A stretch of DNA of 64,000 nucleotides, from contig JAGATX010000033.1 in assembly GCA_017621055.1 (NCBI GenBank), forward strand, positions 44,100 to 108,099. Reading direction: 5' to 3'. Below are positions 45,846 through 63,662 of this stretch, piece by piece. How positions within the stretch are numbered: position 1 is the stretch's first letter; each line of letters begins with the position of its first letter. The stretch comes from Muribaculaceae bacterium. GTDB taxonomy: Bacteria; Bacteroidota; Bacteroidia; Bacteroidales; Muribaculaceae. The notes below the pieces were generated by a model. That model worked only from the letters and a program-made list of their open reading frames with translations, was not told the DNA's origin and made no database searches. The position numbers and the translations under genes were made by a program.

Positions 45846-45904
45846 TATGGTCATTATGATGGTTTATGTGGATTGGGAGGCAAAGAGCGTTTGTTAACGC
45901 GCAG

Positions 45905-47400: not shown

Positions 47401-47430
47401 GGGTGCTAAAATGTTTGGGTGAGATGATTC

Positions 47431-47470
47431 TTGGTTTAGCGCCTATTATATATGCCCTTTTCTAAACCAG
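47431..47470. repeat. Palindromic element with GGGCATATATAA core (copy 2, inverted)
   Basis: TGGTTTAG (47432-47439) pairs with CTAAACCA (47462-47469). The reverse strand carries GGTTTAG, then GGGCATATATAA, in the same order as the element at 34624-34669. Confidence 0.55.
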
Positions 47471-47486
47471 ACCAGAATTGTGGTTT

Positions 47487-48530
47487 TCAATAGTAGAAAT
47501 CCGGATTGTAGATATACTCGCGGTTCTCGTAACGAATCATGCCTTTATTGTCAAGAAAGGTCTTCAAGCCCTTTACCTTGTTGTTGGAATACGAATGTCC
47601 ACAGGCGGCATATCCGCTTTTGAGGGCAGCCTCGCAGTTTCGGCATCCTTTTATCGGGCCATTGGCGAATACCACGCCCAATGCCTCGCGATGCTGTTCC
47701 TCAGTCAACTCCTTGTATGGATAAGGGTCTTTGGTTTTCTTACCCGGCTCGGTGAACACATATCCGCCGGCAATCTCCGGCAGTCCACAATCATTTACAC
47801 GGAAGGCGAATGGATCGAATTCGGCGGCGCGGATCATGGCGGCGCATACTTCCGACACGGTATCATCAGTCTTGCTTCGGCTCACCTGAAGGACTGTTTC
47901 AGCCTTGTTGTTCAGCTCGGTTCCGACATGGCCACGGGCATTGTCGTCGCTTTTGTTGAGATGCAGAACCGTGTGGATATGTATCTGGAACTTGTCAGTC
48001 CATTCCATCAGCTTTCCGATAAGGTCAGTCGATTCTTTGGCGCAGTTGATGTCATACATCAGGTCGCGCACACCGTCGATGATTACAAGTCCTACTCCGG
48101 GAGTGTTGATTATCGCCTGTTCGATAACTTCAAGGCGCAAGGTGGGTGTTAGCTGGCGCAGAGCGGCGAACTTCAGATGTTCCGGATGGGTGTCGGTCGG
48201 GAGTTTCGCCAGGCGCAACGCACGTTCCATAACTTTCTGACAGTGATACGGACTTTGCTCGGTGTCAAAATAGAGGATTGTGCGCTTGTCCTCGGGGAAC
48301 TCGGCGGTATATCCCAATACCTTACCGTTGACGAGCGATGCTCCGACGATGGCAGCGACATTGGAGGTCTTTTTACTCTTTGCCTTACCAGTCGATGCAG
48401 AGAAGTTGCCGAGAGTGCCTATGACACTGCCATTGGCATACAGCACCTCCGGTGCGGTCTGAATCTCATCAGTGATACGCAACTGCTTTTCCTCCCAAAG
48501 TCGGAGAATATCCTCTTTCACTTTTTGCAT
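47487..48530 (-). CDS. RepA-like AAA ATPase (AAA_25 type)
   Basis: A 347-residue RecA-fold ATPase: GTLGNFSASTGKAKSKKTSNVAAIV (variant Walker A), TILYFDTEQSPYH, VGLVIIDGVRDLMYDI (Walker B) and IHTVLHLNKSDDNARGHVG. Proteins like this serve as the replicative helicase/initiator in Bacteroidales mobilizable elements and sit beside a CHC2 primase, as here. It overlaps the upstream DUF3853 gene by 13 bases. Confidence 0.85.
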   Translation of the reverse strand: MQKVKEDILRLWEEKQLRITDEIQTAPEVLYANGSVIGTLGNFSASTGKAKSKKTSNVAAIVGASLVNGKVLGYTAEFPEDKRTILYFDTEQSPYHCQKVMERALRLAKLPTDTHPEHLKFAALRQLTPTLRLEVIEQAIINTPGVGLVIIDGVRDLMYDINCAKESTDLIGKLMEWTDKFQIHIHTVLHLNKSDDNARGHVGTELNNKAETVLQVSRSKTDDTVSEVCAAMIRAAEFDPFAFRVNDCGLPEIAGGYVFTEPGKKTKDPYPYKELTEEQHREALGVVFANGPIKGCRNCEAALKSGYAACGHSYSNNKVKGLKTFLDNKGMIRYENREYIYNPDFYY

Positions 48531-48865
48531 CGGCGACCTCCTTTTCTTTGGGCGTTGTGTTCCTGTACAAGCGCGAGAGCCTTATGCCTGTCAACGACGA
48601 TAGTTCGCTCATTCTGAATGATAGCCCCGTCAATGACACCGCTTTTCTTTAGACGCTGGGCCGTGGGCTTGCTGCATCCGAATATCTCACAGATGCCGGA
48701 AATGCCGTAAGCATATTTTTGTCCGTCGGAAAAATCGTTGACGTTTGCAACCTGTGTCTCCGGCTGATGGCGGTATTTGAGAGCCTCAGCCATAAGAGTT
48801 AGAAACTGTGCCCCTGTCATAAGGCCCAGAGGCAGGCCTAAAATGCTGGATAACTCCATACGCAA
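48518..48865 (-). CDS. DUF3853 helix-turn-helix protein
   Basis: A 115-residue protein with a predicted winged HTH in its C-terminal half (YGISGICEIFGCSKPTAQRLKKSGVIDGAIIQNERTIVV), similar to excisionases and MerR-like domains. It is the first gene of the replication block. Its neighbours and the repeat array just upstream suggest a role in excision or in replication control (inference). Confidence 0.8.
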   Translation of the reverse strand: MRMELSSILGLPLGLMTGAQFLTLMAEALKYRHQPETQVANVNDFSDGQKYAYGISGICEIFGCSKPTAQRLKKSGVIDGAIIQNERTIVVDRHKALALVQEHNAQRKGGRRCKK

Positions 48866-49285
48866 ATCGGTTTTGGTTTGACATACCCTCTCCTAAGATC
48901 GCTCCGTTGAGAGGCATCGGGAAGTGTTCCTCGACAATGCAAAGTTAACACCTGATTTGAGTGGTATCCCAGTGGTAAAAATCAGGAAAATGCAGTTGAA
49001 AATATAAATTTTTTAGTGCGGATTCTAATGCTGTTTTTCAGTTAATTAGCTATAAATATAAGCCAAATTTCATGGGTGGTATCCGATTTTTTGAGTGGTA
49101 AAAGGGTGGTAGCTCACTACCACTCATAGACTATCACTGCCGATTATGAAGCCTCATAACAGAAATAGCCCTGCCGAAGCAGAGCTTTTCTATGTGGTCG
49201 AGGCTGCGCCTATTTTGACACAGCCTCGTTAGGTAGGATGAGGTCCGAACGAGTAGAGCCATTGCCCGCCATTTCGGCGCATGGT
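48866..49285. other. Non-coding stretch at the right side of the mobilization region
   Basis: Very AT-rich to about 49135, with the GTGGTA array, then changing to GC-rich sequence that leads into the giant frame. A hairpin, CGAGGCTG/CAGCCTCG (49199-49228), may be a terminator. No integrase gene is seen; the sequence transition lies at about 49130-49285. Confidence 0.5.
48951..49123. repeat. GTGGTA repeat array upstream of the DUF3853 gene
   Basis: GTGGTA occurs at 48961, 48972, 49076, 49095 and 49106, with an inverted TACCAC at 49118-49123. Neighbours within a cluster are 11-19 bases apart. The first pair is framed by CCTGATTT (48951-48958) and AAATCAGG (48979-48986). Confidence 0.7.
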
Positions 49286-49368
49286 AAAAATTTAGCGTTG
49301 TCATTGTCGATAACGCACGTGGCGATGTCACTGTCGACGAGGATGGCAACGTACACCGCGAAAATGCC

Positions 49369-52300
49369 ATGGGCTGGGGTTCCGCTATCTGGGAGGCCAC
49401 TGCCGACAATGTGATAGAGAATTACTCGGAGATGGCGGGCGCCCGCTTTCCGTCGCTCGTGGGTGTGGGCAAAGCTTTCGGCGCCCGCAGTCTCACGGCG
49501 GGCTATCTGCGTAATGTGCGCAGCGGCGCCGGCACCGTGGTGTCGAAGAGTGTCGATTTCATGCGCCGGCTGGGTCTCAACGGCTACGTCGGCGAGGTCG
49601 GCGAGGAATACTACGGTCAGGGGCTGCGCACTCTCTGCGGCCTTAGAGCCGCCGAAAACGCCGAGCGCGAGAACCTGCTGACCGACGGCCAGTTCCACGG
49701 CGACATATGGGGCGGCATGCTGATGAGCGTAGGTATCACCGGCGGCGTCACCGCCACGGCCGTCGGAGGGTTGAATTACGGCTCTCGGGCGGTGGAGCGG
49801 CATAAGGCTCAGTCGGACGTCAACAAGACGGCGTCGGCCGCCGCTGCCGTCTATCTCACCGACGAGACGTGGAATGCCATGCGCCTTACCGTGGACAACA
49901 CCGACAACGACCATATCGGAGAACTTATAGCACGCGTAAGCTATGACAATACGCTCAACGATAACCAACGCGAGCGCACGCTCGACTACATAGGCGCCAC
50001 CATGAGACTGCGCGGCGTCAATATGGGTATTCTCGCCAGGGACATTCAGTTCCTGCGCGAAGGGAGTGCCGATGATGGCGCTTTACTGTTAGGGAGCGCC
50101 TACGAGGCCGGTGCCAACGGTACGGCCTCCGACAGCCACCGTATCTACATGGAGGCTCAGCGACGCGGCGAGACTCTGGCGGCTGCATGGGGCGTGCCGG
50201 AAAGTGACACCCGCAGCGCCGCGCAGATACTGAGCGACCGCTACCGCTCGCAGGATGTCGAGGCGCTGTACTCCCTTGCGGAGCACGACCGCAACCTCAC
50301 CCCACAGCAAAGAGAGGCGGCGCTTCGCTATCTGGAGGCGCACACCCGCTATATGGGCGCCCGCAATGCCTTCACCGCCGACCTTGAAGCTGATGTCGCC
50401 GAGGCTCAAGGCCGTCTTGCCGCTCAGGCCGACCGACGCACGGGCACGCTGCGGCCCGCAGTGCTCCGCAGCCACAATGAGCAAGGCACCGAGGATGTGC
50501 ATATTGTCGACGGCTATGTGTTCACCAACCGCGACGGCAGCATAGACACCGGCGCATCGTCGGAAACTGTGTGGATCCGCGATGCCCGGGGCGAGGTCAG
50601 GTGCATAAAGCCCGAGGAAATAGAGTCGCTGGGCGCTGCCATGCCGCTACCCGACGCGCAGCAGCGCGCCGAGCGAGATCTTCGCCGGCAGCGCGAGGAA
50701 GCTTTCAACGCGCGTTTCGCGCACGCCCGCCTCGACCTTTCGCCTAACGCCAAGGTCGCCGTTGAGGGCGCCGACGGCTTTGTGGAGGCGACGGTGGTAG
50801 GCACTCGCGACGGTGGCGTGGTCGATGTTGTCATGCCCGATGGCTCCCTCGGCTCCTACACTCCCGAGCAGCTGCAGGCCGCGGCCGATGCCGCCGAAAG
50901 GCAGGCGTTCGACAATGAGATGAACATCCCCGTGCCCATGCCACCGACGTCTCAGGAACAGCCGCAAAGCGCCGCCACCGAGTCTAATCAGCCGGAAGAG
51001 GCAGCGCCCAATCAAGGCGCCGGAGAGGCAGCCTCCAATCAGCCCGAAGCTGCCGCCCCTGCCGAGCCGCAAAGCGCACCTGCCGAACCTTATCAGCCGG
51101 AAATGGGCGACCCTGTCATCCTTGTTGGAGGCGGCAGGGGTACGGTTATCGGCGTGGAAGACGAAGGCAATGGCGAACGTCGTTACACGGTGGCCGTGGA
51201 GGGTCCCAACGGCGCCGACGAGCGTGTCGACATCTTTACCATCGAGGACTTTGTCACTCCCGAACCGGCTCCCGCGGAGACTCCCGAACCTGCTGCCGCA
51301 CCGACGGGCGCAGAGGCATCGGCCTCTGAACAAGGCACTCCCGTGTTGACGCCTCCGGTAACTCCGCCTGCGCTTCCGTCGGCCCTGGAGCGGATGCCTA
51401 CTATTACCGACCGTCGCGGGCGCCAGACAATCGACTGGACAGGCGCCGACCCGGCACTGGCTTGGGAGGCTTTCGTCGAGCAATCGGGCGGTGACGCCGA
51501 GGTCGCCCGCGGTGCTGTCGACAATATGGTGAGAGCCGCAAAGAATGCGCTCAAGGCTGCCAAGAGAACCACAGCGACCGACGACGTAGACCGAGCTATC
51601 GCCAACGAGACAAAGCGCCAGACGGCCATCGTCGAGGCCACGCGTGTCGTCGCCGCATGGGAGGCCATCGCCGCCGTAGGGAACCGAGAGAAACAACGCG
51701 CACTGATATCCCAGATAATTCGGGTTGCGCGCAAGATTAAAGATCGGGTGGAACGCGCCGTTATTGGAGCCGTTACTACACGACAGTTAAAGGATTTAGA
51801 GGAGCAAGGAGTCAATATCGATGACTCTTGGGTTCATTCTTTCGAAACTTCTGCAGTAATACATAATCAGAAGCAACATGGCAATGCTCGTCTGGAAGCT
51901 AACAGAGGACAGATAGCCATAACAGACGAAGACTATGCCCGCATTCCTGAAATTCTTGCCTCTTACGACAAGGTGACGAAATCTCCCAACCGTTCTCGAA
52001 GTACCGGGAACGAAGTCTTAATATATGAAAAGGATTTTGGCGATGGCTATGTGTATTATCTGGAAGAAAAACGGGATAAGCGCAAATCGCTCGCATTCCA
52101 GACCATGTATAAAAAGAAGCAAGGAACTGATAGTCCCGACGGGTTGATGCCTAATGCCTCTCCCTCCACGCCCATAGCGCTTTCGGACAATCTCAGTTCC
52201 TTTTCCGAGCGCAAAGATAGCGACTCTTCGGAGGAAAAACAAGAGGTGGGCGGTGAAAGTTCGGCGGCCCTGCCGCGGATGCCGCGTCGGCGCACTGCCA

Positions 52301-55300
52301 AGGGCAAGGAGGTTATCGACTGGGGCGGCGCCGAGACTTCTCTGGCGTGGGACGCTCTTGTGGAGACTGCCGGCGGTGATGCCGAATTGGCGCAGTCGTT
52401 GGCCGAAAAGAGGCTGGCGGCCGCCGAGAAGGCGCTTGCCGCCGCCAAAAAGGCCAATGTCAATGGCGACGAGGACTTCGAGGGTTATATTGCAGCTTTC
52501 AAGGAGGCCGAACGGATGGTGGGCGTATGGAAGGCCATCGCCGGCGAGAACGCACGCCGTGCCGAGGCCGCGCTTATCGCCGAACTGGAGGCTGCACGCG
52601 AGCGTGAGCGTCTCCGGAACGCGGAAAATGCCCGCGACGCTGCCGCCGAGCTTGGCTCTGTTCCGCCAATAGACCTCGACGTGGCGGCCAATGCACGTAC
52701 GCGCGGTTTCCGTCGTGTCGACGACGAGCGCGTGGAACGACAGCAGCCACTGACGCCTGCCACTGTTGGCAATGAGGTTGAGGTGCGCTTCACCAAGACC
52801 AAAACGCAGAAGTGCCGTGTTGCGGTTATTGATGCTTCGGAGCTGCAGCCCAGCCACCGGCAGGGGCACCGCAATCCCATGCACTTCATCGACGAGGCTC
52901 AGCCCAAGGAACGCACCAACCGCCAAGACGGCGGCGTCAGCGCCCAGGCAGCGCGCGACATTGCCAACAATGTGCGCCCGGCAGAAATTACCGGCAGCGT
53001 GTCGGCATATGTCGGCGCGCCGGTGGTCAATGGCCGCGGCGAGGTTATCCAGGGCAACAACCGCGCCGACGCCTTGACGTGGATGTGGCGCAACAACGCC
53101 GGCTCGGCTACGCGCTACAAGCAATATCTGATCGACCATGCCGACGAATTCGGTATCGATGCGGCAGCAGTAGCGGCCATGGAAGCGCCGGTGCTGGTGA
53201 ATATGGCCGACGTCACCGACGACGAGGCCATAGCTCTTGGTCAGCATACCTCCACGGAGAACGAGAGCGGAGGCAGCGAACGCATATCGGCTGTTCACAC
53301 GGCCTCTAAACTCGGCAGGATGGCTGCGGAGTTTGTCGGCCGGATTATGCGTGGCGACGAGGCGATGTCGATAGTCGACCGCATATCGACCAACGGCGAG
53401 GACGTGCTGAACTGGCTCGCCGAAAAGGGCATTATCACGGAAACTCAGCTCAACACCGCAACCTATGGCGGAGCGATAACCCGCGAAGGCGCCGCCGACC
53501 TGCTGGAGGTTGTCAAGCGTCTGGCCTTTGCCGACGCCGCTCCGGTGGTAGAGCGCGTTTTCGAGCAACTGCCTGTCGCCGCTCAGAATGCCATATTGTC
53601 GGTGGCGTACCGCGACAATCGTTCGTCCGAGGGCCAGCGTCTTCTGCCGGAGATACAGGCGAGCATACTTGCCTACTCGATGCTGCTCAACTACAAGCCG
53701 TTCCACGACGCCAAAACCGTGGATGCAGCCCGCGAAGCCATGGAGAAGTGGAGCGCCCAGACGGAGTTTGACACTTTAACCGGCGAGAGCGTGCATCCTT
53801 CGGATAATTTCAGTAACTTCGCGCTCGAACTGGCGGTGCTCTACCGCAAGGGCACGCAGAAGAACATCCTTGTGGTGTTCAACGACATCTTCGACCTCAT
53901 TCAGGGCCAGCCGCGTCTTGACTACGCGGCAGAGGGTGTGACTGGCGCCGTGAGCCTTGCCGAGGCTGTGCGCCGAGTTTTAAATATAGAATATACAACA
54001 GCAAGAAACAATGGACAAAAACAGAACGATGGAGCCGCTGGAGGCTCTGATGTGGGCATCGATGGTGAGACAGGCCAGCCAGGGCGACCCGGAAGCCATG
54101 GAGATGCTGCAGGCAGCCAACAAGAGCCGCGCAGCCCGCAACCTGCCGACGGTGGAGGACGAACTGCAGACGATAGCGGAGCAGCAGGAGAAAGCAGCTT
54201 ATCAGAGGGAAGTAGCTCGGGAATTCAAGAGGTTCATGTAGGACTTCAAGACAGCGAAGATGAGGTAGTCATGCCTCATACACTTCGATGGAGCGACGAA
54301 CGAGCAGGGAATGGTGAGCCATTCTTAATAGGAGCCGACGGCACTATAAACTTGGTTGAAATCAGTCAAGATGTGTTCGAAAGGATGGGCATTAAAAGGG
54401 CACCATTCCGTCTCACACCATCCATGGTTGCTCATGTTTATGAGCGCCACAAAAAAGAACTCGGACTTAACTCTCCCGAAGAAGCAGTCGAGGCAGTCCT
54501 CGATGTTATGAATAATTTTGACCATGTCCGACAAGGGAAAGGTGAAACCTTTATCTTCTCAGTAGAGGGTGCCCGCAAAAATTCCGCACGTCGTGCTGTT
54601 ACATTCGTTCTTGAATATGATAAAGGGCAATGGCTCGGCATTAAGACTGTCGGGTATGACAGAGTCGCCAATATAAAAGAATTGACCACGCTTTGGGAGA
54701 AGGGCGAGGATAAAACTTCTACTACAGGCGTTGCTCCTGCAAATGTTTCTTCCGAACAGCCCTCCCAAGGCAACCAGACTGCCGGCATCGCTTCAAACCA
54801 AAGTGCGGCCATTTCTGAGCGCAAAGGTACTAACTCTGCATCAGGTAAACAAGAGGCGGAGGTCGAAAGTTCGGAAAAAAGTGTTAACTTAGCGGAGCGG
54901 GAGGCTCGTGGTGAGCAATCCGACGGCGCTGTGAGCGCAGAAATTACCGCAAAACTTGTGGAATTTGCCCGCAAATTCAAAGGCGCAGGCGCGCGTGGCA
55001 TACCGGCTATTGAGCGCGATATGTCGAAATGGATGTCGGGGTGTACAGCGGAAGATCTTGTCGGTCTTGACGCAAGGTCGCTTGCCGAAGTCTGCAACCG
55101 TGCCGGCCTCGACAAGGGGAAAGCGTGGGCTTTCAGAATGTCGATAGACAAGGCTACGCCAAAGGGTCTTGTCGAGGAGGTTTTCGAGCTAAGGGACCGG
55201 CGCCGCAGAGAAGTCCGCGGGCCGCAGTTTGCTGTCGGCGCCGGAAGTCCGGGGAATGCCGAGGTCTATGAGACCGCCAAGGGTCTGCTCGAGCGCGCGG

Positions 55301-58300
55301 GCATAACCTTTCATGAGGTCAGCGACGTGGAGGCTCAGGCTATGCTTGCGCCCAAATCCGATGGCACGCAACTGATGGGTAGCCGCACCGACCGGAAGAT
55401 GGCCGAGGTTGGCAGTCACTTCGCCGGCAGGGAACTTGATGGGAACGCTCAGGCGGTTGTCGATGTGTTCTCCGGCAAGCGCGACAATGTTGCTGTCGAG
55501 GTTGAGCGGCCTGAAGGAAAGAAGCGCGTCGTCATGCGTCAGGGTCGAGAGTCCAAGGCAGGAACGAAGCATTCGCTGTTCAGGCACTTCAGAACTTCGA
55601 GCAACTATATCACCGCTGATGACATTGCGCTGATACCGGAAATCATTGCCAAAGGCGAACGAAGTGTCACCGGCAATAAAATTGCGTATGACTATACTAT
55701 AGAAGACGGGGTGCGACTGAGGGTGACGACCGAAAAGCACGGCATGAACGAGCGTTTTACCAACTTCCTTTCAAATAGGGAACCTCGACAGGAGAAGAGG
55801 GCAGAAAACACGCAATCAAGCGCGCCCAGATCTGATGCCGAGGTTTCGGCTGCAAAGGTAAGCAATAATTCCGAGGACGGCAAACCCCAGCTGCTCAGAA
55901 CCGCCGATGGCGTGGTGTATGGTTGGACGGTAAACGGCGAGGTTTGGCTGAACCGCGATGCGATGAACCCCGAGACGCCGCTGCATGAGTATACCCATCT
56001 GTGGGATGCCATGGTGCGGAGGGAGAACCCGGAGCTGTGGGCCCGCGGCAAGGAGCTGATGAAGCAGACTCCGCTGTGGCAGGAAGTCCTCGACGACTCC
56101 AACTATGCCGATATCCGCGAGAACGAGGACGCCGTGGCCAGCGAGGTTCACGCGCGGCTGACCGGGCGGCGCGGTGCCGGGCGCTTGGAGTCGATGATTG
56201 AAGGGGCCCGCAAGGAAGACCCCCTCACCATGGCGCGCAAAGTGGCGCTTGTCGAACGCCTCAAAGGATGGCTGCACGATATGTTCAAGGAGATCAAGGC
56301 GACTCTTGGCAAATGGAGCGGCCGCGACCTGCGCGGGCTGACAGCAGAACAGTTCGCCGACATGACACTCCGCGACCTGGCCGAGGGCGTGAACCCACGT
56401 TCCGGCGATAAGACACTTGTCGCGGTTCACAACATCAGCGAGGCCAAGCTTCGTGAGGCGCTGGATCTGGGCGGCCTGCCGATGCCCAGTATCGCCATAA
56501 CGAAAGCAGCGACTGGCCATGGAGAGTTTGGCGAGATTTCGCTGGTTTTCGGCAAAGAGAGCATCGACCCTTCTGACAGACGCAATAAGGTATACAGCGG
56601 AGATGCATGGACTCCGAGGTTTCCGACAGTGGGATATAAATTCAATAGCGCAAAGACTTCGGAGATATATGAACGGGCCAATAGGGCAGGTCATCTGCCT
56701 CTGTTCAGAGCTGTTGATTTTCACCCCGACAATTATGAGCGCCGCATTGACGGCAACGGAGACAGTAGCCTTGTGGATGCCTTCATGAATGATTACAGCG
56801 CCAAGCAGCTTTTTCTGTCGGAGAAAGGGAAGGCCGTCACTGAGTATGAATGGCATGAGGTCGAGAAATATACTCCTGAAAATATCGGCTTATATGAGAA
56901 GATGCTCGAACAGATCGGTTTGGAGCGTCTCAGAAACGACAGCTACGAGACTCTGCTGCCCGAACTCAAAAAGCTCATTGGTGAATATCGCGGCGAAGAT
57001 TTTGACTCGCTGAAACCCTTCGTGGCTAAGACTTTGGTCAGAGGCTCGATAAGAAATGCTGTTGATTATGCCGACAACGGCAATCTCAAGACGGAGACGG
57101 ATTTAGCGGCTACCGAGGCTAAGATTGACGGGCGTATCGATCTGCAAGAGTACAGAGAGTGGCTTGAACAACTGTTTGCGGGTGTTGTCGAGAAGAAAGG
57201 CATCCGCAACGACCGTGATATGTTCACCCCCTCCGGTAGCAGCCGCAAGTGGGAGTCGCTCTATGATGCGGTGACGCTTGACAACGTTGTCAGCGCTATG
57301 CAGCGGCAGGCGCCGAAAGGTGGCGAAGGGTTCTTTGGCAGCAGCATCTTCGGTGCATCGACCAAGGAACTGAAGGATATCGGTGACATACGCCGGGAGG
57401 CTGCGGCAAGGATAGCGTCGATGCCGGAAGAGGAACACGAGGCGGAAGTGGCTCGGATAAACGAGCGTCTTGTAAAAGTGAGTTTGCCTTCGGCATCGCA
57501 AAGCATCTCGGCCTCAATGGATTTTGTGGAGAATGTCAAAGACGCGGTAACCCGAACGCACACAGCGGCGGGAATTTATCGTTACCTGAAAGGTATTTAC
57601 CCGGACATGACAATGGAGGCAGCCGATGAGATTGCCGACATTGTCGGCGACATACAGAAGATGGCCACTCGTTATCTCGAAGCCAAGCCACAGCGCGCTG
57701 TAGGCTTTGAAGAAGTGAAGCTGGCGGTCGTCCCCGATGGCACCGCCTCAGAAGTCGTGGGGCAGCTCGAACGTCTCGGCATACCTGTAAGAACCTATGA
57801 ACGTGGCAACGAGCATCAGCGAAGTACAATTATCAGCCATGAGACTGCGGAACAGGGCTTGCGGTTCCATGTCGCGATGGCGCGTGACCGAGAAGACTTC
57901 GATGCCATGTTAGAGCGCGCTGTCAGGGAACGCGGCATTGTCATGCCGGGGCTGAATGAGGCAACCGTTCGCGTTATCGATGTTGCGCCGCATGACTTCA
58001 CGGGTGAAAAGCCGATAGCCCAGGCTCGTCAATGGGCAAAATCACATATCGTAGGCGAACACACACTTGTCGATAGCGATGGTGTTGAGCAACCATACAT
58101 CATTAGTGGGAGGGCTGTCGACAAATATCTAAGTTCAAGTGCCATTGACAAGAGTGCCAATTTAGGCGCCCATCTATCGGTGCTGACAAGGCTGCCCGAA
58201 GTGATAGATGCAAGCATCGAGGCCGAAGTCCATCCCGACTTCAAGAAAAAAACAGGCGGTATACGTCTTGTTGAGAATGGCTATAATAAAGATCTTCTGA

Positions 58301-61300
58301 TACATCGTCTTTATGGCGCCGTGAACATAGTGGGTGAGACGTATAGGGTAAAAACCACCATAAAGGAGTCTCGGATACCTTCTGAGGAATTGACGGCCCA
58401 CAGTTTCGAGGTAACAGAAATCGAGCTACTGTCGGAAGACAATAGCCCGATGGATTTGGAGCCCACGGCGTCTGACTATCAGGGTCAGCTCCCACATGGG
58501 ACTGCAAATTTACTTCAAGGAGTTGAAAAATCCTACGAACCGGGCAAAAAAATTTTGGACGAGAGCGAAAATGCCGGCATGGTGCGCGAGGAAAACTCAC
58601 ATTTCGCTGACCGGATGGGGCGCCCGCACAAGGTCATGGGAAGTGGGAATAGGCAACTCAGTCTTTTCGAGGCAATGGAGGATGAGGGCGCCCAGGCAAA
58701 TCTGTTCACCTACTCCGACGGCACTACCGAGGAGGATGAGGCTGCCGGGGCTGTCAATGCCGAGATAGATAATTACATGGAGGCCTTCGGCGCCTTCCTC
58801 GGCGACTATGCCGCCGTGGAGGAAGATGCCGACCTCACCGACGAGCAGCGCGCCGCCCGTTTCGAAGAGCTCGAGGATGCTATCTTCGACCGTCGCGACG
58901 CCGTTATCAACCTCGTCGCCGCCTATTACAGCGAACGGGGCGTCGCTGCCGCCGATGCACGTCTGCAGGCCCGCGACCTTGTGAGCAATGTTCAGGCGCA
59001 GGTCAGCGCCGAACTCGGCGGTAAGGCTATGCTACGCGCTGCCGTCGAGAACCAGCGCGCGGCCACCACCGCTCCCGCCCCTGCCACGCCCTCCTATCGC
59101 ACCCTCGGCGGCGACGTGATAACGTACAGCCACACCGGTGCTCTCGGCGAACGGGGCGACGGCGAGTTCTGCCTTGTGGAGCGCCGCTTTGCCGAGGATC
59201 GGCAGTTCGCTTTCAGCGGCAGTGCCAAGGTGGAGAGCGCCGACGATGTGGCTTATATCTTCCGCCAGCTCGAAAACTCGGCGGTGGAGAATACTTTCGT
59301 TGCCTTTGTCAAGGACGGCAAGCCCTATGTGGTGCATGTCGGCATGGGCAGCGCCGTGGCGTCGATGGTCGACGGTATCGCCGTGCGCGGTGCCTGGGAT
59401 GCCCTCGGCGGTGCCGACGCGGTGTACTTCGTGCACAATCATCCCAGCGGTAACCTCAGAGCCAGCTCGCAGGACCATGCTCTTCTCAAAGCCGTTGAGG
59501 GTATGTTCCCCGGCGTCAAGGTAGGTGGCGTGATTATCGACACCCGCAGCGCAAAATACGGCACATTCGGGCAACTGCTGGGCGACGGGACAACCTTACG
59601 CCCCGCATCGGCGCGCGGCGGAGAAACGCCGGTAACAGTATCGCAGTTCAGCGGCTACGAGTTCTCGGCCGACTCCAACCCCGACAACCTCACGCAGATA
59701 GGCAACTCCGGGGATATCGCCAAGTTCGTGTCCACTCAGCGGCTGGGGACCCGCGGCAAGGTCGGCGCTCTTATATTGAGCCAGCAGAACGGCATAGTGG
59801 CCAACTTCCATCTGCCGTTCGCCGACATATCGGATGCCGAAGCGGTGGCCGAGACAATCGCCCGCCTGTGCACGCGCTATGGCGGCGCGCGTGCCGTGCT
59901 CTACGGCAACTACACCAACCGCCGCGACGAGGTCGGGCCGCTGTCGGCCACCGTGCGCCGCAAGACCAACGGCGCCGTCAGAATACTCGACAGCGTGACG
60001 GTGAACAACGGCATCAGAGAGTCGGCTTTCGACAACGGCATGATAGGCGAAGCGAGCTTGCCTTACAGCGATGCCCGGTCAGAGAGCGGTAACTCCTTTA
60101 ATGGCGAGAATGCCCAAGAGAGAGGCAGAGCATTCATGCAATTAAATAGCGAGGAGGCCATGGCTCTTGTTTCCAAAATGGAAGTATCGGCAGTAGATGA
60201 TCCTAAGATTGAACTAACTCCCGAAAGTTGGTATAATTCGTTTGGTCTAAGTAACTCTATTGACACTCCGTTAGGAAAGGTTAAGATGGGTGAAAGCCAG
60301 TATCAGAAATTGGTAGATAAAAAGCGGTCTGCCGAATTCGGAATGGTTGTTCAGACGCTTCAAGACCCCGATGTAGTCTTTATAGAGCCAAGCGAGGCCA
60401 AAGAGGGACAGACCGCTGAACGTAACTTCTCCTACGTCTTTGTCAAAACCTTTATCCGTGACGGCAAGAAGTTCAAATATTACACATCCGTTTCTGTCAT
60501 GAAAGACGGCATGGAGGTGTCTGTAAGCAGCCACATTGCAAGTAAGACGGCAATAATGAAGAAGCTGCAGAATATGGAGCGAGCATATACAAAAGTATCG
60601 CTTCTCCCCAACAGCTCTGAATGGCACTTAGCTGAACATCCTACGGATGTGCCGGACCTCCTTCCTACGCAAGGGAAAAGCGAACTTTCTGGCCGCAAAG
60701 ATAGCGACTCTTCTCAAGAAAAACAAGAGGCAGAGGGTGAAAGTTCCGAGAGCGACGATATTCTCTATCGCGTTCGCGAAAAAGAGGCGCCGAAGGCTAC
60801 CCGCAACGCTGAAATCGAGAGCGCAGTCGAGATGTTCAAGACTCGTTATCGCTGTCAGCCCACCGTGATATTGACCAATGCCGCCGACATCGAAAAAGAG
60901 CAGCTGAGCGTCACAACTAAGAAAAAACTCCGCCAACTTTTTGAAAGCGGCGAAGCTGCCGCATCGTATTGCCCGGAGAACAAAAAAATATATATCTTTG
61001 CAGACGCATTCAACAAGGAACGCTCTGCCGATGTGGTTCTCTATCATGAAAACGTACATGCGGCAGTAGACGCAATTGGCAACAAGTCACGTTCAGCATT
61101 GCGTTCGCTGGCAAAGGCTATGATAACCGACGATGCCCGTTTCGGAGAGCTTTACGGCGCCATCCGGAGCGAATACGGGGACTTCGAAGCAGATGAGGAA
61201 TTTGCAGCGTTTGTGCTTTCCGAAGCACTGCGGCGTCCATACTTCAGTCAGGTATGCAGTTCAATAGCAGGCCGAGCATCCGAAGTTGTTGGATTAATTA

Positions 61301-62349
61301 CGAAACAAATAGAACGAAATGACGAGCAATATCAAAATAACGGAACTAATAGAGGACCTCTTCGGAGAAGAGGAAGTGCAGCCCAGAGCACAGAAGCCGA
61401 TAACGGCAATGGAAGCCGCGCCCACAGAGGAGCAGCCAGCCCAGCCGGAGGCAGAGAGCGCACCGACTCCCGACTGAAAGCAGACGAAATCCATGGCGCC
61501 GTTGCCGCTGCCGCGGCGCTCAACCTCGATAATGTGGAGGTGGTTGCCGACGGTAGCGGTCTGAGCGGACGGCGCGCGTCGGCCAAAGGCTTCTACAACC
61601 GACGCACCGGCAAGATAACCATCGTCGCGTCCAACAACGAGACTGTGGCCGACGCCATGGCCACGCTCCTGCACGAGGCCGTGGCGCACTACGGCCTGCG
61701 CGCCCTCTTCGGCGAGCGGTTCTATACGTTCATCGACAACGTCTATTCCGCCGCATCGCCCGAGGTGCGCCGCCGCATCGATGCCCTCGCCGCCGAAAAC
61801 GGCTGGAACGTGCGCACCGCCACCGAGGAATATATGGCCACGCTGGCCGAAGACATGAACTTCGAGCAGGCAAAGCGCACCGGCTGGTGGGCGAAGATAC
61901 GTCAGGCATTCGCCGATATGCTCGCCGCCTTGTGCGTGCCCGGCTTCGACGGCGCCGCCATCACCGACAACGAGTTGCGCTATATCCTGTGGCGCAGCTA
62001 CCGCAACCTCACCGAACGCGCCGACGACAGCCTGATAGCCGCCCGCGACGTCGCCCGCCGCGCCGAACTCGGCCTCACATCTGCCGAACAGTATCAGCCC
62101 GTGCTGCCCCAGAGCACCTCCGTCGCCCGTGCCAACGAGGAAGATGACGTGCTTCTGCGCTCCGGGCGTAAGTACGCCGACGCCCGCGAGGAGTACGACG
62201 ACGCCGTGCGCACCATCAACGAGCGCAACAAAGTCACCGACGAAGTCCGCAGTCAGGGGATAAGGATTTTGGTGGTTGCGGAGCCTTGGCGGCGAAGGTA
62301 TACGCCGGGGAGGGTGGGGTTGGCTACGGAGCGGCCGGTGAGGTCGTAA
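49369..62349 (+). CDS. Giant polyvalent mobile-element protein, truncated at both ends
   Basis: 4,326 codons from the first in-frame ATG. Protein-like sequence (VTVDEDGNVHRENA) runs upstream to a stop at 49285-49287. Real coding ends near 62252; the last ~30 codons are antisense to a host gene. Visible parts: a glycine-rich helix (115-134), an SH3/KOW-like segment (579-625), a duplicated unit (672 and 967), a DdrB-like ParB domain (1105-1300, GEVIQGNNRADAL), zincin motifs HEYTH (2206), HENVH (3893) and HEAVAH (4102), an LPD3-like domain (2834-3024), clamp motif QLSLF (3096) and RadC/JAMM HNHPSGNLRASSQD (3356). PBECR-like nuclease modules lie at about 803-918, 1640-1782, 2043-2136 and 3639-3758. 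Such proteins are injected or expressed by phages and conjugative elements. Confidence 0.8.
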   Translation: MGWGSAIWEATADNVIENYSEMAGARFPSLVGVGKAFGARSLTAGYLRNVRSGAGTVVSKSVDFMRRLGLNGYVGEVGEEYYGQGLRTLCGLRAAENAERENLLTDGQFHGDIWGGMLMSVGITGGVTATAVGGLNYGSRAVERHKAQSDVNKTASAAAAVYLTDETWNAMRLTVDNTDNDHIGELIARVSYDNTLNDNQRERTLDYIGATMRLRGVNMGILARDIQFLREGSADDGALLLGSAYEAGANGTASDSHRIYMEAQRRGETLAAAWGVPESDTRSAAQILSDRYRSQDVEALYSLAEHDRNLTPQQREAALRYLEAHTRYMGARNAFTADLEADVAEAQGRLAAQADRRTGTLRPAVLRSHNEQGTEDVHIVDGYVFTNRDGSIDTGASSETVWIRDARGEVRCIKPEEIESLGAAMPLPDAQQRAERDLRRQREEAFNARFAHARLDLSPNAKVAVEGADGFVEATVVGTRDGGVVDVVMPDGSLGSYTPEQLQAAADAAERQAFDNEMNIPVPMPPTSQEQPQSAATESNQPEEAAPNQGAGEAASNQPEAAAPAEPQSAPAEPYQPEMGDPVILVGGGRGTVIGVEDEGNGERRYTVAVEGPNGADERVDIFTIEDFVTPEPAPAETPEPAAAPTGAEASASEQGTPVLTPPVTPPALPSALERMPTITDRRGRQTIDWTGADPALAWEAFVEQSGGDAEVARGAVDNMVRAAKNALKAAKRTTATDDVDRAIANETKRQTAIVEATRVVAAWEAIAAVGNREKQRALISQIIRVARKIKDRVERAVIGAVTTRQLKDLEEQGVNIDDSWVHSFETSAVIHNQKQHGNARLEANRGQIAITDEDYARIPEILASYDKVTKSPNRSRSTGNEVLIYEKDFGDGYVYYLEEKRDKRKSLAFQTMYKKKQGTDSPDGLMPNASPSTPIALSDNLSSFSERKDSDSSEEKQEVGGESSAALPRMPRRRTAKGKEVIDWGGAETSLAWDALVETAGGDAELAQSLAEKRLAAAEKALAAAKKANVNGDEDFEGYIAAFKEAERMVGVWKAIAGENARRAEAALIAELEAARERERLRNAENARDAAAELGSVPPIDLDVAANARTRGFRRVDDERVERQQPLTPATVGNEVEVRFTKTKTQKCRVAVIDASELQPSHRQGHRNPMHFIDEAQPKERTNRQDGGVSAQAARDIANNVRPAEITGSVSAYVGAPVVNGRGEVIQGNNRADALTWMWRNNAGSATRYKQYLIDHADEFGIDAAAVAAMEAPVLVNMADVTDDEAIALGQHTSTENESGGSERISAVHTASKLGRMAAEFVGRIMRGDEAMSIVDRISTNGEDVLNWLAEKGIITETQLNTATYGGAITREGAADLLEVVKRLAFADAAPVVERVFEQLPVAAQNAILSVAYRDNRSSEGQRLLPEIQASILAYSMLLNYKPFHDAKTVDAAREAMEKWSAQTEFDTLTGESVHPSDNFSNFALELAVLYRKGTQKNILVVFNDIFDLIQGQPRLDYAAEGVTGAVSLAEAVRRVLNIEYTTARNNGQKQNDGAAGGSDVGIDGETGQPGRPGSHGDAAGSQQEPRSPQPADGGGRTADDSGAAGESSLSEGSSSGIQEVHVGLQDSEDEVVMPHTLRWSDERAGNGEPFLIGADGTINLVEISQDVFERMGIKRAPFRLTPSMVAHVYERHKKELGLNSPEEAVEAVLDVMNNFDHVRQGKGETFIFSVEGARKNSARRAVTFVLEYDKGQWLGIKTVGYDRVANIKELTTLWEKGEDKTSTTGVAPANVSSEQPSQGNQTAGIASNQSAAISERKGTNSASGKQEAEVESSEKSVNLAEREARGEQSDGAVSAEITAKLVEFARKFKGAGARGIPAIERDMSKWMSGCTAEDLVGLDARSLAEVCNRAGLDKGKAWAFRMSIDKATPKGLVEEVFELRDRRRREVRGPQFAVGAGSPGNAEVYETAKGLLERAGITFHEVSDVEAQAMLAPKSDGTQLMGSRTDRKMAEVGSHFAGRELDGNAQAVVDVFSGKRDNVAVEVERPEGKKRVVMRQGRESKAGTKHSLFRHFRTSSNYITADDIALIPEIIAKGERSVTGNKIAYDYTIEDGVRLRVTTEKHGMNERFTNFLSNREPRQEKRAENTQSSAPRSDAEVSAAKVSNNSEDGKPQLLRTADGVVYGWTVNGEVWLNRDAMNPETPLHEYTHLWDAMVRRENPELWARGKELMKQTPLWQEVLDDSNYADIRENEDAVASEVHARLTGRRGAGRLESMIEGARKEDPLTMARKVALVERLKGWLHDMFKEIKATLGKWSGRDLRGLTAEQFADMTLRDLAEGVNPRSGDKTLVAVHNISEAKLREALDLGGLPMPSIAITKAATGHGEFGEISLVFGKESIDPSDRRNKVYSGDAWTPRFPTVGYKFNSAKTSEIYERANRAGHLPLFRAVDFHPDNYERRIDGNGDSSLVDAFMNDYSAKQLFLSEKGKAVTEYEWHEVEKYTPENIGLYEKMLEQIGLERLRNDSYETLLPELKKLIGEYRGEDFDSLKPFVAKTLVRGSIRNAVDYADNGNLKTETDLAATEAKIDGRIDLQEYREWLEQLFAGVVEKKGIRNDRDMFTPSGSSRKWESLYDAVTLDNVVSAMQRQAPKGGEGFFGSSIFGASTKELKDIGDIRREAAARIASMPEEEHEAEVARINERLVKVSLPSASQSISASMDFVENVKDAVTRTHTAAGIYRYLKGIYPDMTMEAADEIADIVGDIQKMATRYLEAKPQRAVGFEEVKLAVVPDGTASEVVGQLERLGIPVRTYERGNEHQRSTIISHETAEQGLRFHVAMARDREDFDAMLERAVRERGIVMPGLNEATVRVIDVAPHDFTGEKPIAQARQWAKSHIVGEHTLVDSDGVEQPYIISGRAVDKYLSSSAIDKSANLGAHLSVLTRLPEVIDASIEAEVHPDFKKKTGGIRLVENGYNKDLLIHRLYGAVNIVGETYRVKTTIKESRIPSEELTAHSFEVTEIELLSEDNSPMDLEPTASDYQGQLPHGTANLLQGVEKSYEPGKKILDESENAGMVREENSHFADRMGRPHKVMGSGNRQLSLFEAMEDEGAQANLFTYSDGTTEEDEAAGAVNAEIDNYMEAFGAFLGDYAAVEEDADLTDEQRAARFEELEDAIFDRRDAVINLVAAYYSERGVAAADARLQARDLVSNVQAQVSAELGGKAMLRAAVENQRAATTAPAPATPSYRTLGGDVITYSHTGALGERGDGEFCLVERRFAEDRQFAFSGSAKVESADDVAYIFRQLENSAVENTFVAFVKDGKPYVVHVGMGSAVASMVDGIAVRGAWDALGGADAVYFVHNHPSGNLRASSQDHALLKAVEGMFPGVKVGGVIIDTRSAKYGTFGQLLGDGTTLRPASARGGETPVTVSQFSGYEFSADSNPDNLTQIGNSGDIAKFVSTQRLGTRGKVGALILSQQNGIVANFHLPFADISDAEAVAETIARLCTRYGGARAVLYGNYTNRRDEVGPLSATVRRKTNGAVRILDSVTVNNGIRESAFDNGMIGEASLPYSDARSESGNSFNGENAQERGRAFMQLNSEEAMALVSKMEVSAVDDPKIELTPESWYNSFGLSNSIDTPLGKVKMGESQYQKLVDKKRSAEFGMVVQTLQDPDVVFIEPSEAKEGQTAERNFSYVFVKTFIRDGKKFKYYTSVSVMKDGMEVSVSSHIASKTAIMKKLQNMERAYTKVSLLPNSSEWHLAEHPTDVPDLLPTQGKSELSGRKDSDSSQEKQEAEGESSESDDILYRVREKEAPKATRNAEIESAVEMFKTRYRCQPTVILTNAADIEKEQLSVTTKKKLRQLFESGEAAASYCPENKKIYIFADAFNKERSADVVLYHENVHAAVDAIGNKSRSALRSLAKAMITDDARFGELYGAIRSEYGDFEADEEFAAFVLSEALRRPYFSQVCSSIAGRASEVVGLITKQIERNDEQYQNNGTNRGPLRRRGSAAQSTEADNGNGSRAHRGAASPAGGRERTDSRLKADEIHGAVAAAAALNLDNVEVVADGSGLSGRRASAKGFYNRRTGKITIVASNNETVADAMATLLHEAVAHYGLRALFGERFYTFIDNVYSAASPEVRRRIDALAAENGWNVRTATEEYMATLAEDMNFEQAKRTGWWAKIRQAFADMLAALCVPGFDGAAITDNELRYILWRSYRNLTERADDSLIAARDVARRAELGLTSAEQYQPVLPQSTSVARANEEDDVLLRSGRKYADAREEYDDAVRTINERNKVTDEVRSQGIRILVVAEPWRRRYTPGRVGLATERPVRS
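51775..52120 (+). other. PBECR-like nuclease module 1 inside the giant protein
   Basis: The core SAVIHNQKQHGNARLEANRG, ITDEDYARIPEILASYD and a following strand-rich part (VYYLEEKRDKRK) resemble the phage Barnase-EndoU-ColicinE5/D-RelE-like fold. The DNA is clearly more AT-rich than the sequence on either side. Confidence 0.55.
52207..52263 (+). repeat. Module linker repeat, copy 1
   Basis: Encodes ERKDSDSSEEKQEVGGESS. It contains the 20-mer CGCAAAGATAGCGACTCTTC, shared exactly with copy 3 at 60694. Confidence 0.8.
54011..54241 (+). CDS. Small +1-frame ORF overlapping the giant frame
   Basis: 76 codons (MDKNRTMEPLEALMWASMVR through AYQREVAREFKRFM) with a normal, helical, charged composition and GC-rich third positions. 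The giant frame over the same bases gives a Gly/Ser/Pro-rich low-complexity peptide. It starts where the ParB-containing part ends and stops just before nuclease module 2. It may be a real small gene, or the original continuation shifted by an indel. Confidence 0.45.
   Translation: MDKNRTMEPLEALMWASMVRQASQGDPEAMEMLQAANKSRAARNLPTVEDELQTIAEQQEKAAYQREVAREFKRFM
54286..54714 (+). other. PBECR-like nuclease module 2 inside the giant protein
   Basis: FRLTPSMVAHVYERHKKELG, then VLDVMNNFDHVRQGKGETF and a strand-rich end (RRAVTFVLEYDKGQWLGIKT) resemble phage PBECR nucleases. AT-rich relative to the flanks, and followed by linker copy 2. Confidence 0.5.
54817..54874 (+). repeat. Module linker repeat, copy 2 (diverged)
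   Basis: Encodes ERKGTNSASGKQEAEVESS. GAGCGCAAAG at the start and AAACAAGAGG near the end match copy 1. Confidence 0.7.
55494..55776 (+). other. PBECR-like nuclease module 3 inside the giant protein
   Basis: HSLFRHFRTSSNYITADD, ALIPEIIAKGE and DGVRLRVTTEKHGMNERF have the same order of features as module 1 (His, IP-EI, strands). It is not followed by the linker repeat. Confidence 0.5.
60283..60640 (+). other. PBECR-like nuclease module 4 inside the giant protein
   Basis: LGKVKMGESQYQKLVDKKRS, VVQTLQDPDVVFIE and KKFKYYTSVSVMKDGMEVSV form a pattern common in phage polyvalent proteins and assigned to the PBECR superfamily. AT-rich, and followed by linker copy 3. Confidence 0.55.
60691..60750 (+). 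repeat. Module linker repeat, copy 3
   Basis: Encodes GRKDSDSSQEKQEAEGESS; close to copy 1 in DNA as well as in protein. Confidence 0.8.
61319..61477 (+). CDS. Second small +1-frame ORF overlapping the giant frame
   Basis: 52 codons, MTSNIKITELIEDLFGEEEV through AESAPTPD, ended by TGA. The giant frame over the same bases is an Arg/Gly/Ser-rich low-complexity peptide. It lies between zincin motifs 2 and 3, in the same +1 frame relation as the ORF at 54011. Confidence 0.35.
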   Translation: MTSNIKITELIEDLFGEEEVQPRAQKPITAMEAAPTEEQPAQPEAESAPTPD

Positions 62350-63662
62350 TATTCGACGGGGACGTCGGGGTCGGGCGTTGCTATCTGCGGCGCTGTGGTC
62401 GATTTTCCGCTGTAAGACAACCGGTAATGCGCCATCGAGCCGTGGTTCGACGAGATGTAGAGGTCGGCGCTGCTGCCGTCGGCCGAGGGTATGGCGCATG
62501 CACAGGTGTTGTGGTTGTGGCGGATGCCGTTTTCGGAGGAATCGTCGCCGCGGGCAGCGAAATTATCGGTGAGGGTCCACAGGGGCTGCACGGCGGCGGT
62601 CGCCCGGGAAGCGGAGGAGGGCAGGATGCCCACGGAATAGCGGGGCTGCTCGGCCCCGATATTGTAAACCACTATGTTGTAGCCTCCAAGAACGAAAGCA
62701 GTGGCACCTGAGTCGTAGACGTCGGCTGCCACACCGGGCAGTTCGTTTATGACAGTCATCTCCGGGCCGTCGATGGCGGCGACAACGGGGGTGGTGGTCA
62801 CGAAATCGTTGCGGCCGGTGCTGACAAATGTCCATCCGCGGTTGCTGTCGGCATATCGGCCGTTGTCGTCGAATACAAACGTCCCCGTACCGGCTATGGG
62901 ACTGACGGTGGCATAGGTTGTGTTGAGATGTATCACGCTGTGGCTCTGAACGTCGCCGTCCAAGCTCCACCGCACCAGCCACTTGTGCGACAGGGCATAA
63001 TCCACGTTCCACGTCGGGCTGAATCTGTCGCGCATCACAGCCGTTGCAGTGAACTTCCCGGCACGGACGTCGCCGTCGACAAACACCTTGCCGGCAAACA
63101 TACCATCTTCAACCTCAAGCTGATATCTGCCGACTATGGCAACGTTGCCGTCGGCGTCGATTTCGAGCGGGAACACCAGCAGGGCGAGACCGTTGGCGGT
63201 GTTCGGCGTGCTCATATAGGCGTTTCCGGCGGTATCGGTTCCGACGTAGACATAATTGGGATAACAATCCGTCAGACTGTAATCCCCTGCGCTTATTTGT
63301 GTTATCGCTCCCTTGGCTGTGCCGGAGGCGTTATGGTTCACGCCGTCGATGCGCGTGAGATACGGCGCGCTCCCCTTGGGAACGTGAACACCTTCGCCGC
63401 CGAAAAACAGATAGTTGCCTGACACCACAAAGTCGCCGAACTTGTCGGGCGAGCCGACAATGAAAGGCTGCTCCAGCAGTATATCGCCGCCGTCCCAATT
63501 GTAGAACTCGGGATTGAACTCAACCAGTTCGATTGAAAATTCGCCGTCCTCGGTGCTCACCTTGTCGTAAGCGTCAGCCTGCAGACCGCCGGCAGCCGCG
63601 GACGCCGCAACGAAACACACCGGGAGCATCTTCGTAACAAAGAGATTTTCAATCAGTTTCAT
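62253..63662 (-). CDS. Secreted protein with Bacteroidales C-terminal secretion tail
   Basis: A 469-residue exported protein with a signal peptide (VTKMLPVCFVAASAAAGG region). The body is beta-strand-rich with repeating strand-turn patterns (GNYLFFGGEGVH; YVYVGTDTAGNAYMSTPN; DLYISSNHGSMAHYRL), likely a propeller-like fold. The end YYDLTGRSVANPTLPGVYLR through TKILIP is the short C-terminal sorting-type tail common in this order, also present in the gene at 17910. It has its own promoter. Its stop codon abuts the end of the giant frame, with no terminator of its own. Confidence 0.8.
   Translation of the reverse strand: MKLIENLFVTKMLPVCFVAASAAAGGLQADAYDKVSTEDGEFSIELVEFNPEFYNWDGGDILLEQPFIVGSPDKFGDFVVSGNYLFFGGEGVHVPKGSAPYLTRIDGVNHNASGTAKGAITQISAGDYSLTDCYPNYVYVGTDTAGNAYMSTPNTANGLALLVFPLEIDADGNVAIVGRYQLEVEDGMFAGKVFVDGDVRAGKFTATAVMRDRFSPTWNVDYALSHKWLVRWSLDGDVQSHSVIHLNTTYATVSPIAGTGTFVFDDNGRYADSNRGWTFVSTGRNDFVTTTPVVAAIDGPEMTVINELPGVAADVYDSGATAFVLGGYNIVVYNIGAEQPRYSVGILPSSASRATAAVQPLWTLTDNFAARGDDSSENGIRHNHNTCACAIPSADGSSADLYISSNHGSMAHYRLSYSGKSTTAPQIATPDPDVPVEYYDLTGRSVANPTLPGVYLRRQGSATTKILIP

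What the first reader, a model, noticed from the sequence alone, without database searches (positions are those of the whole stretch)
49286..62252. A 13-kb uninterrupted frame for a multi-domain polyvalent protein, standing alone in the chromosome
One frame stays open for over 4,300 codons and joins ParB-like, three zincin-like, JAMM, LPD3-like and several nuclease-like domains. Phage polyvalent proteins of this kind are known, but here there are no phage structural genes, no conjugation genes of matching type, no start and no natural stop. An open frame of this length implies recent arrival or selection.
Basis: partly seen in the sequence, partly recalled or inferred. Interest (0 to 1): 0.8.

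Follow-up and report, generated by a model that had tools for sequence, protein, structure and literature searches.

The report
Orphaned slice of phage ejection gene
The 13-kb open frame is the middle of a giant multi-enzyme gene that phages of gut Bacteroidales carry beside their DNA-ejection genes, stranded in a bacterial genome without its ends, and the intact family often carries host-style promoter signals pointing backwards behind its RNase modules, possibly a built-in safety lock.

Summary
Confirmed: one frame is open from 49288 to 62349 (4,353 codons). Its ATG and TAA are fortuitous: homology to intact relatives begins at the first codon and stops near 62238, beside a host gene. Intact relatives have about 525-540 more N-terminal and about 1,000 more C-terminal residues. 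In relatives the gene lies between T7-gp14/gp15-like ejection genes and a P22-type portal, the place of ejection protein gp16. The window copy stands beside a mobilizable element lacking its integrase, 1.7 kb from a contig end: a prophage remnant or a chimeric contig. A solitary broken remnant also occurs in a cultured isolate. It belongs to the known polyvalent proteins (Iyer 2017).

New: the giant genes carry Bacteroidales-type promoter motifs on the opposite strand, often just behind BECR-type RNase modules: 117 antisense sites against 21.7 in synonymous shuffles; spacing peaks at 19/20 as in intergenic DNA; near-invariant codons (AAA 46/48, CAA 47/48); two reading frames. The window has four. 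I suggest antisense RNA silences RNase modules in lysogens. No transcript has been seen; 30 of 92 frames lack a strict site, and only 99 of 500 module ends have one.

The parts
49288..62238 (+). internal fragment of a giant phage polyvalent gene (frame continues to the fortuitous TAA at 62349)
   Evidence: homology to other giants from 49288 to 62238; frame residues 6 and 1 align to residues 525 and 541 of the G018 and G029 giants
51796..52128 (+). PBECR3 RNase-like module
   Evidence: Pfam PF18812, 4.1e-22
52795..53205 (+). ddrB-ParB module
   Evidence: Pfam PF18763, 2.4e-22
54220..54813 (+). RNase-like module, weak PBECR3 similarity (E 0.15, below cut-off); H72, H77 and N99 invariant in the 6 aligned sequences
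55252..55845 (+). unnamed module (KHS..HF motif), aligned with 3 other giants, no Pfam match
55984..55998 (+). zincin-like motif HEYTH
56407..57009 (+). PBECR5 module
   Evidence: Pfam PF18814, 3.2e-49
58021..58374 (+). LPD3 module
   Evidence: Pfam PF18798, 1e-6
59410..59499 (+). RadC/JAB-like module
   Evidence: Pfam PF04002, 2.3e-4 on the whole protein, 3.1e-6 on a piece
60259..60582 (+). PBECR2 RNase-like module
   Evidence: Pfam PF18810, 4.2e-6 on a piece, 27.4 bits against cut-off 27.1
61045..61059 (+). zincin-like motif HENVH
61672..61689 (+). zincin-like motif HEAVAH (HExxxH form)
   Evidence: read by eye
52198..52264 (+). linker, copy 1, behind PBECR3
   Evidence: nhmmer
54809..54874 (+). 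linker, copy 2, behind the module at 54220-54813
   Evidence: nhmmer
60683..60748 (+). linker, copy 3, behind PBECR2
   Evidence: nhmmer
52212..52242 (-). antisense promoter-like site
   Evidence: pattern; matrix trained on intergenic sites 20.9, 10th percentile of those sites 19.8
54822..54852 (-). antisense promoter-like site
   Evidence: pattern; matrix 19.9
55853..55883 (-). antisense promoter-like site
   Evidence: pattern; matrix 23.1
60696..60726 (-). antisense promoter-like site
   Evidence: pattern; matrix 20.9
34736..49188 (-). left neighbour: methylase and helicase genes, then a mobilizable element (MobA-type relaxase, DUF3408, weak CHC2/Toprim primase, AAA_25, HTH-like ORF) without an integrase
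   Evidence: Pfam; ORFs; DNA similarity to G023:C25 runs to 49187-49188, and G023 has a 472-aa ORF beyond that point that I read by eye as an integrase
62253..63662 (-). right neighbour: gene apparently complete at its C-terminus, its stop codon lying at the right border of the fragment
   Evidence: alignments in other genomes reach residues 465-469 of 469 in most listed rows

Best explanation
The frame is about three quarters of a giant polyvalent protein gene of a short-tailed Bacteroidales phage, cut at both ends and left in the chromosome. In intact phages the gene follows a T7 gp14-like and a gp15-like gene and mostly precedes a P22-like portal gene, so the product most likely takes the place of the ejection protein gp16: packaged in the head and pushed into the host with the DNA (inferred). 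There its zincins may cut it into parts, and its ParB-, JAB- and BECR-RNase-like modules act on host nucleic acids or defences (inferred, following Iyer 2017). Several RNase modules end in a linker whose opposite strand looks like a Bacteroidales promoter; I infer that antisense RNA from it keeps the RNase part silent while the gene is dormant (odds about even). In the window the gene has no native start or stop and is probably not expressed as a working protein: a prophage remnant, less likely a chimeric contig.
For: Homology spans 49288-62238; giants of 5,804 (G029), 5,480 (G050), 6,994 (G022:C51) and 6,337 aa (G004) lie beside portal and TerL genes. Portal HMM match on the held DNA in 39 of 51 viral loci, gp14 plus gp15 upstream in 5 of 5 N-terminal loci; portal in 25 of 40 genome loci. 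P22_portal in both scanned portals and T7_gp14 above cut-off in 1 of 3 scanned proteins, SU10_MCP, portal and terminase by PHROGs. Missing ends and full-length portal not found in G000. Solitary broken remnant in an isolate, L235. Antisense motif.
Against: No near-identical parent was found in viral contigs, phage records (megablast only) or the genus, so the missing ends are inferred from relatives, about 30% identical at the N-terminal border and 60% near the C-terminal one. No reads were available to exclude a misjoin. No transcript or protein data. gp15-like is named by position; it has no Pfam match in 4 proteins (only an insignificant YHS hit) and no PHROG match in 1. Strict antisense sites lie near only 99 of 500 module ends.
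Confidence: 0.8

Rival explanations
1. Chimeric assembly: the contig joins a piece of a phage gene to two unrelated host pieces, and the solitary state is an artefact.
For: 34-contig draft genome, junction 1.7 kb from the contig end; the mobilizable element stops before the place of its integrase near the left border; no flanking repeat longer than 14 bases in the listed matches; contig G042:C122 ends at the point matching 62181-62200. Solitary intact-frame copies seen elsewhere are from draft metagenome genomes.
Against: The right-hand gene is not cut into but ends at the border. In other truncated or solitary cases (L216, L225, L231, L234, L235, G018, G022:C55) the nearest host genes that I could see look uncut; this was by eye, some borders lay outside the held DNA, and it was no systematic count. 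A cultured isolate has such a remnant, with a broken frame.
Confidence: 0.25
2. Captured and working: the host keeps the fragment under selection as an anti-phage or superinfection-exclusion protein, as Iyer 2017 proposed for polyvalent genes outside elements.
For: 4,353 codons without a stop, while other truncated copies (L235, G041) have broken frames; Iyer 2017 sections 6 and 32.
Against: No native start region: the ATG is internal and upstream codons are coding by homology. Other long open solitary pieces also lack ends, so openness may simply mean recent.
Confidence: 0.1
3. The conserved linker DNA is a recombination handle for swapping modules, not a promoter; its likeness to a promoter is secondary.
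For: Several direct copies per gene; third-codon identity 78-90% in the K-KQ linker blocks against mostly 40-58% in module bodies; similarity between giants is patchy, module by module.
Against: The two boxes have the same spacing optimum as intergenic DNA, 19-20; a matrix trained on 31 intergenic sites finds 54 antisense sites against 1 in shuffles; unrelated peptides in two reading frames carry the same boxes.
Confidence: 0.2

Closest known systems
Polyvalent proteins of phages and conjugative elements (Iyer et al. 2017, PMC5512222; abstract, sections 6, 8, 19, 32, 34 and passages seen), incl. Helicobacter jhp1044
   Same: ddrB-ParB, PBECR, LPD3, RadC and zincin modules in one chain, next to virion genes in the relatives, mosaic modules; their third context (copies in host genomes outside elements) fits the window
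   Different: the gp14-gp15-giant-portal row is not described in the parts I read (gp16 absent from the main text); linkers with antisense promoter motifs are not mentioned (antisense, promoter, linker absent from the main text)
T7/P22 ejection protein gp16 (review PMC8954989, passages seen)
   Same: same place in the row: gp14-like, gp15-like, then the large gene
   Different: 3,373-6,994 aa in the giants with both neighbours here against 609-1,337 aa in the review; sequence homology to gp16 not shown
cis-antisense RNAs of Bacteroides (DonS type, type-I-like pairs; PMC7366714, passages seen)
   Same: sigma-ABfr-type promoter on the strand opposite to the gene it may silence
   Different: promoter-like site lies inside a coding linker, repeated behind several modules of one phage gene; transcript not shown

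Membership tests
polyvalent proteins | several modules of unrelated activity in one chain | tested here: met
   PBECR2, PBECR3, PBECR5, ddrB-ParB, LPD3, RadC, zincin motifs
polyvalent proteins | encoded with virion or conjugation genes, or (third context of Iyer 2017) in a host genome without such genes | tested here: inconclusive
   virion genes beside it in relatives; none recognised in the window, whose left neighbour is a mobilizable element with a relaxase; fits the third context
polyvalent proteins | transfer into the host cell with the DNA | not testable with these tools
   needs virion proteomics
podoviral ejection protein (gp16 slot) | third gene of the gp14-gp15-gp16 row | tested here: met
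   for intact relatives: gp14 and gp15 HMM matches upstream in 5 of 5 N-terminal viral loci; T7_gp14 Pfam above cut-off in G050, below it in G029 and G105
podoviral ejection protein (gp16 slot) | sequence or fold of gp16 | not tested
   no gp16 family among Pfam or PHROG matches of the window piece; the N-terminus of intact giants was not scanned and no structure was predicted
normal chromosomal gene | start and stop at these borders in homologues | tested here: not met
sigma-ABfr-type promoter | TAnnTTTG with an upstream TTG/TTTG box at the spacing seen in intergenic DNA | tested here: met
   antisense counts 41 and 72 at spacings 19 and 20 in giant frames; 11 and 20 in intergenic DNA
cis-antisense RNA / type I-like lock | an antisense transcript that lowers expression | not testable with these tools
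   no RNA data

The most novel reading that the evidence does not exclude
RNase modules of giant phage polyvalent genes in Bacteroidales travel with their own backward-facing host-type promoter, written inside the coding linker behind them. Antisense RNA from it is a built-in antitoxin-like lock that lets a prophage carry many RNases in one gene without harming the lysogen.
Probability: 0.5. Interest if true: 0.8.

Novelty: new variant of a known kind. Interest (0 to 1): 0.6.

Why it matters
The frame itself is a remnant of a known kind, but it led to a DNA signal inside protein-coding linkers of a large phage gene family. If these are working antisense promoters, they would explain how temperate phages keep multi-toxin genes silent, be a cis-antisense control woven into coding sequence, and mark module borders in giant genes. 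It is directly testable with strand-specific RNA-seq of lysogens. The work also places giant polyvalent proteins in the gp16 slot of a T7/P22-like ejection row.

Tried and rejected
A parent of the fragment was sought in viral contigs, phage records (megablast) and the genus; none was near-identical. A shared flanking repeat or insertion site for solitary fragments: not seen; L225 and G022:C55 have short local repeats only. The hairpin at 49200-49227 was considered as an insertion-sequence end; its flanks differ between the copies seen, so it looks like a dispersed repeat. An empty-site test for the window was not possible: the right-hand gene has no close relative (best 25% identity). For G022:C55 it failed because its right-hand gene is poorly conserved. 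Antisense-coded proteins behind the sites: not supported, antisense ORFs are shorter than background (median 20 against 36 aa, 97 sites). Antisense terminators: 23 of 102 sites against 12 of 102 random places, weak. The first codon table used linkers chosen by DNA and showed only the 18 of 25 that fit a protein pattern; it was repeated with linkers chosen by protein pattern alone, patterns that I wrote after seeing the sites.

Results against the lock reading: local 40-codon shuffles still give 31-55 sites (8 shuffles), so part of the signal is local codon make-up; 30 of 92 frames have no strict site; only 99 of 500 module ends have one, the 500 including the sites' own modules; related linkers are not independent and some genes count as two or three frames; the 109 control segments were drawn away from sites; in one linker block (58499-58574) third-codon identity is only 58-79%; the PBECR5 module of the window has no strict site behind it. 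Four of 113 strict sites, with under 150 residues before them, were dropped from the upstream scan.

Full report
OBSERVATION. The frame exists as described. Stop-to-stop it runs from 49288 to 62349, 4,353 codons; the mechanical ORF is 49369-62349, 4,326 aa, ATG to TAA. The window is G000:C8:44100-108099 of a 2.03-Mb, 34-contig draft genome, and the window's right end is the contig's end.

THE ENDS. Codons before the ATG are coding: frame residues 6 and 1 align to residues 525 and 541 of the giants of G018 and G029. Homology to giants covers 49288-62238. The last ~30 codons are read antisense through the C-terminus of the gene 62253-63662(-); matches to that gene in other genomes reach its residues 465-469 of 469 in most listed rows, so its end looks natural. 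The giant of G029 is 5,804 aa. Its C-terminal 1,026 aa have no match in G000; its N-terminal 785 aa match G000 only at the window locus, from query residue 540 on; of the portal only a short portal-like protein is present. Start and stop of the frame are therefore fortuitous.

DOMAINS. Pfam gives PBECR5, ddrB-ParB, PBECR3 and LPD3 above cut-off, RadC and PBECR2 above cut-off on pieces. Two HExxH motifs and one HExxxH motif read by eye give three zincin-like sites; Iyer 2017 describes both forms (section 8).

WHAT IT COMES FROM. In relatives the usual order is integrase, TerS-like (opposite strand), gp14-like, gp15-like, giant, P22-type portal, TerL, scaffold-like, SU10-type capsid. TerS-, gp15- and scaffold-like are named by position and mutual similarity only; T7_gp14 passes the Pfam cut-off in one of three proteins scanned. 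A scan of viral contigs with the C-terminal zincin block gave 51 loci, one with the N-terminal block 5, two others none. A portal match lies on the held DNA in 39 of 51; 12 have none, in a few because the giant reaches the end of the held DNA. All 5 N-terminal loci have gp14 and gp15 directly upstream. In genome contigs 40 loci were found, 25 of them with a portal on the held DNA. Record titles are mainly Bacteroidales, cultured Phocaeicola, Bacteroides, Muribaculaceae and Prevotellamassilia among them; one title says Bacillota, one only bacterium. In podoviruses the ejection genes form a row gp14, gp15, gp16, with gp16 of 609-1,337 aa (PMC8954989, passages). The giant occupies the gp16 place; that it is ejected is inferred.

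WHY ALONE. Left of the fragment lies a mobilizable element; similarity to its relative in G023 stops at 49187-49188, and G023 carries beyond that point an ORF that I read by eye as an integrase. Solitary or truncated giants occur elsewhere: G018 (C-terminal end lost), G022:C55, L216, L225, L231 and L234, and L235 in the isolate Prevotellamassilia timonensis An873, where the remnant is broken into several frames between host genes. L216, L225, L231, L234 and the record matching G018 are titled MAG; G022 is unnamed. In L234 the host gene rplQ is present beside the fragment. So remnants are real, but for the window a chimeric join remains possible. Iyer 2017 already describes polyvalent genes outside elements as captured remnants (sections 6 and 32).

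AN UNEXPECTED SIGNAL. Three 61-base direct repeats in the window proved to be copies of a linker found in-frame in other giants (36 nhmmer hits, duplicates of overlapping loci included, all in frames of 218 codons or more; 34 distinct after iteration). In these linker blocks third-codon identity is 78-90%, against mostly 40-58% in module bodies; another linker block (58499-58574) has 58-79%. On the opposite strand the linker reads TTG-N20-TAnnTTTG, the Bacteroides sigma-ABfr type (PMC7366714, passages). In 92 dereplicated giant frames (330,822 codons; some genes give two or three frames) the pattern with spacing 19-21 occurs 117 times antisense and 14 times sense; gene-wide synonymous shuffles (20) give means of 21.65 and 8.0, maxima 27 and 14. 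Local 40-codon shuffles (8) give 31-55 antisense. The antisense spacing profile has 41 at 19 and 72 at 20 over a background near 9; the sense strand has 8 and 2 there, its largest value being 22 at spacing 43. Intergenic DNA of the fetched stretches (163 pieces) has 11 at 19 and 20 at 20, next highest 12 at spacing 0. Control coding genes (299, 117,712 codons, two pieces of giants left in by oversight): 10 antisense against 8.3 in shuffles; intergenic DNA 33 against about 2. Other genes of the viral loci (159, 64,518 codons): 2 antisense against 3.8 in shuffles, spacing 19-20. A matrix trained on 31 intergenic sites (some from the window's own non-giant DNA) finds 54 antisense and 6 sense sites in the giants at those sites' 10th-percentile score; shuffles give 1.0 and 0.75 (4 shuffles).

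DNA-LEVEL CONSTRAINT. Linkers chosen by protein pattern alone with K and Q nine residues apart (48) use AAA 46 of 48 and CAA 47 of 48 times, backgrounds 0.40 and 0.39. The ten other distances tried together have 62 cases, AAA 43 and CAA 28. A second, unrelated linker (A/T-K-I/V/L-V/I..F) in another reading frame gives the same bases: codon xCA 25 of 25, AAG 22 of 25, next codon xTA 24 of 25. The 117 sites fall 68, 48 and 1 in the three frames.

WHERE THE SITES LIE. Of 109 segments of up to 198 aa directly upstream of strict sites, matches were MuF_C 27, LPD3 13, PBECR1 11, PBECR2 11, PBECR3 6 (68 in all, a member may match twice). Of 109 random segments from the same frames, kept away from sites, one matched PBECR5 and none the five families above. 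MuF-C is a PBECR domain according to Iyer 2017. Conversely only 99 of 500 module instances, found with those same segments, have a strict site near their end, against 5.3% of random places, and 62 of 92 frames have at least one strict site. The window has four, scoring 19.9-23.1.

MECHANISM. Shown: position, strand, spacing, codon constraint, association with RNase-like modules. Inferred: that RNA polymerase starts there, that the RNA runs back through the module, and that this silences it. Antisense ORFs are shorter than background, so a coded antitoxin is unlikely.

PRIOR ART. Full-text searches were: polyvalent protein with antisense (5 of 5 listed), antisense promoter with prophage, lysogen, toxin (12 of 3,028 listed), antisense RNA with Bacteroides, prophage, phage (12 of 24), PBECR (2 of 2), large polyvalent protein with Bacteroides, portal, ejection protein (12 of 5,566), antisense transcription with phage, Bacteroidetes, late genes (10 of 34). 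No listed title or abstract start describes this; only listings were seen. Iyer 2017's main text has no occurrence of antisense, promoter or linker. The library is open-access only, so absence from print is not established.

VERDICT. The finding is a real but ordinary kind of object, an orphaned slice of a polyvalent phage gene. The antisense promoter-like signal in its family is the part worth following.

Noticed in passing
G000:C12:13579-14829; G018:C10:71488-72747 (L096:11477-12811): A short (about 430-460 aa) P22-portal-like gene recurs in most of the 49 genomes of the genus; in G018 and G000 it stands among ORFs that I read as host genes (in G018 near rplM, rpsI and tsf, by eye) without other phage genes that I recognised. 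Possibly domesticated.
   Followed up: partly
window 49200-49227: A 28-base hairpin repeat (GAGGCTG...CAGCCTC) found in many of the searched Bacteroidales genomes, in several of them 20-80 bases from a contig end.
   Followed up: partly
L225:1368-1464 and 12635-12731: Short similar sequences on both sides of a solitary giant fragment, in direct orientation.
   Followed up: no
linkers, e.g. window 52255-52262: GAAAGTTC, 12 bases past the CAA box, is kept in 17 of the 18 linker copies tabulated (chosen for an ES[S/A] peptide; serine codon AGT in all 18) and might bind a regulator.
   Followed up: no
G022:C51 and G004:C18: Giant frames of 6,994 and 6,337 aa, the longest met here.
   Followed up: no
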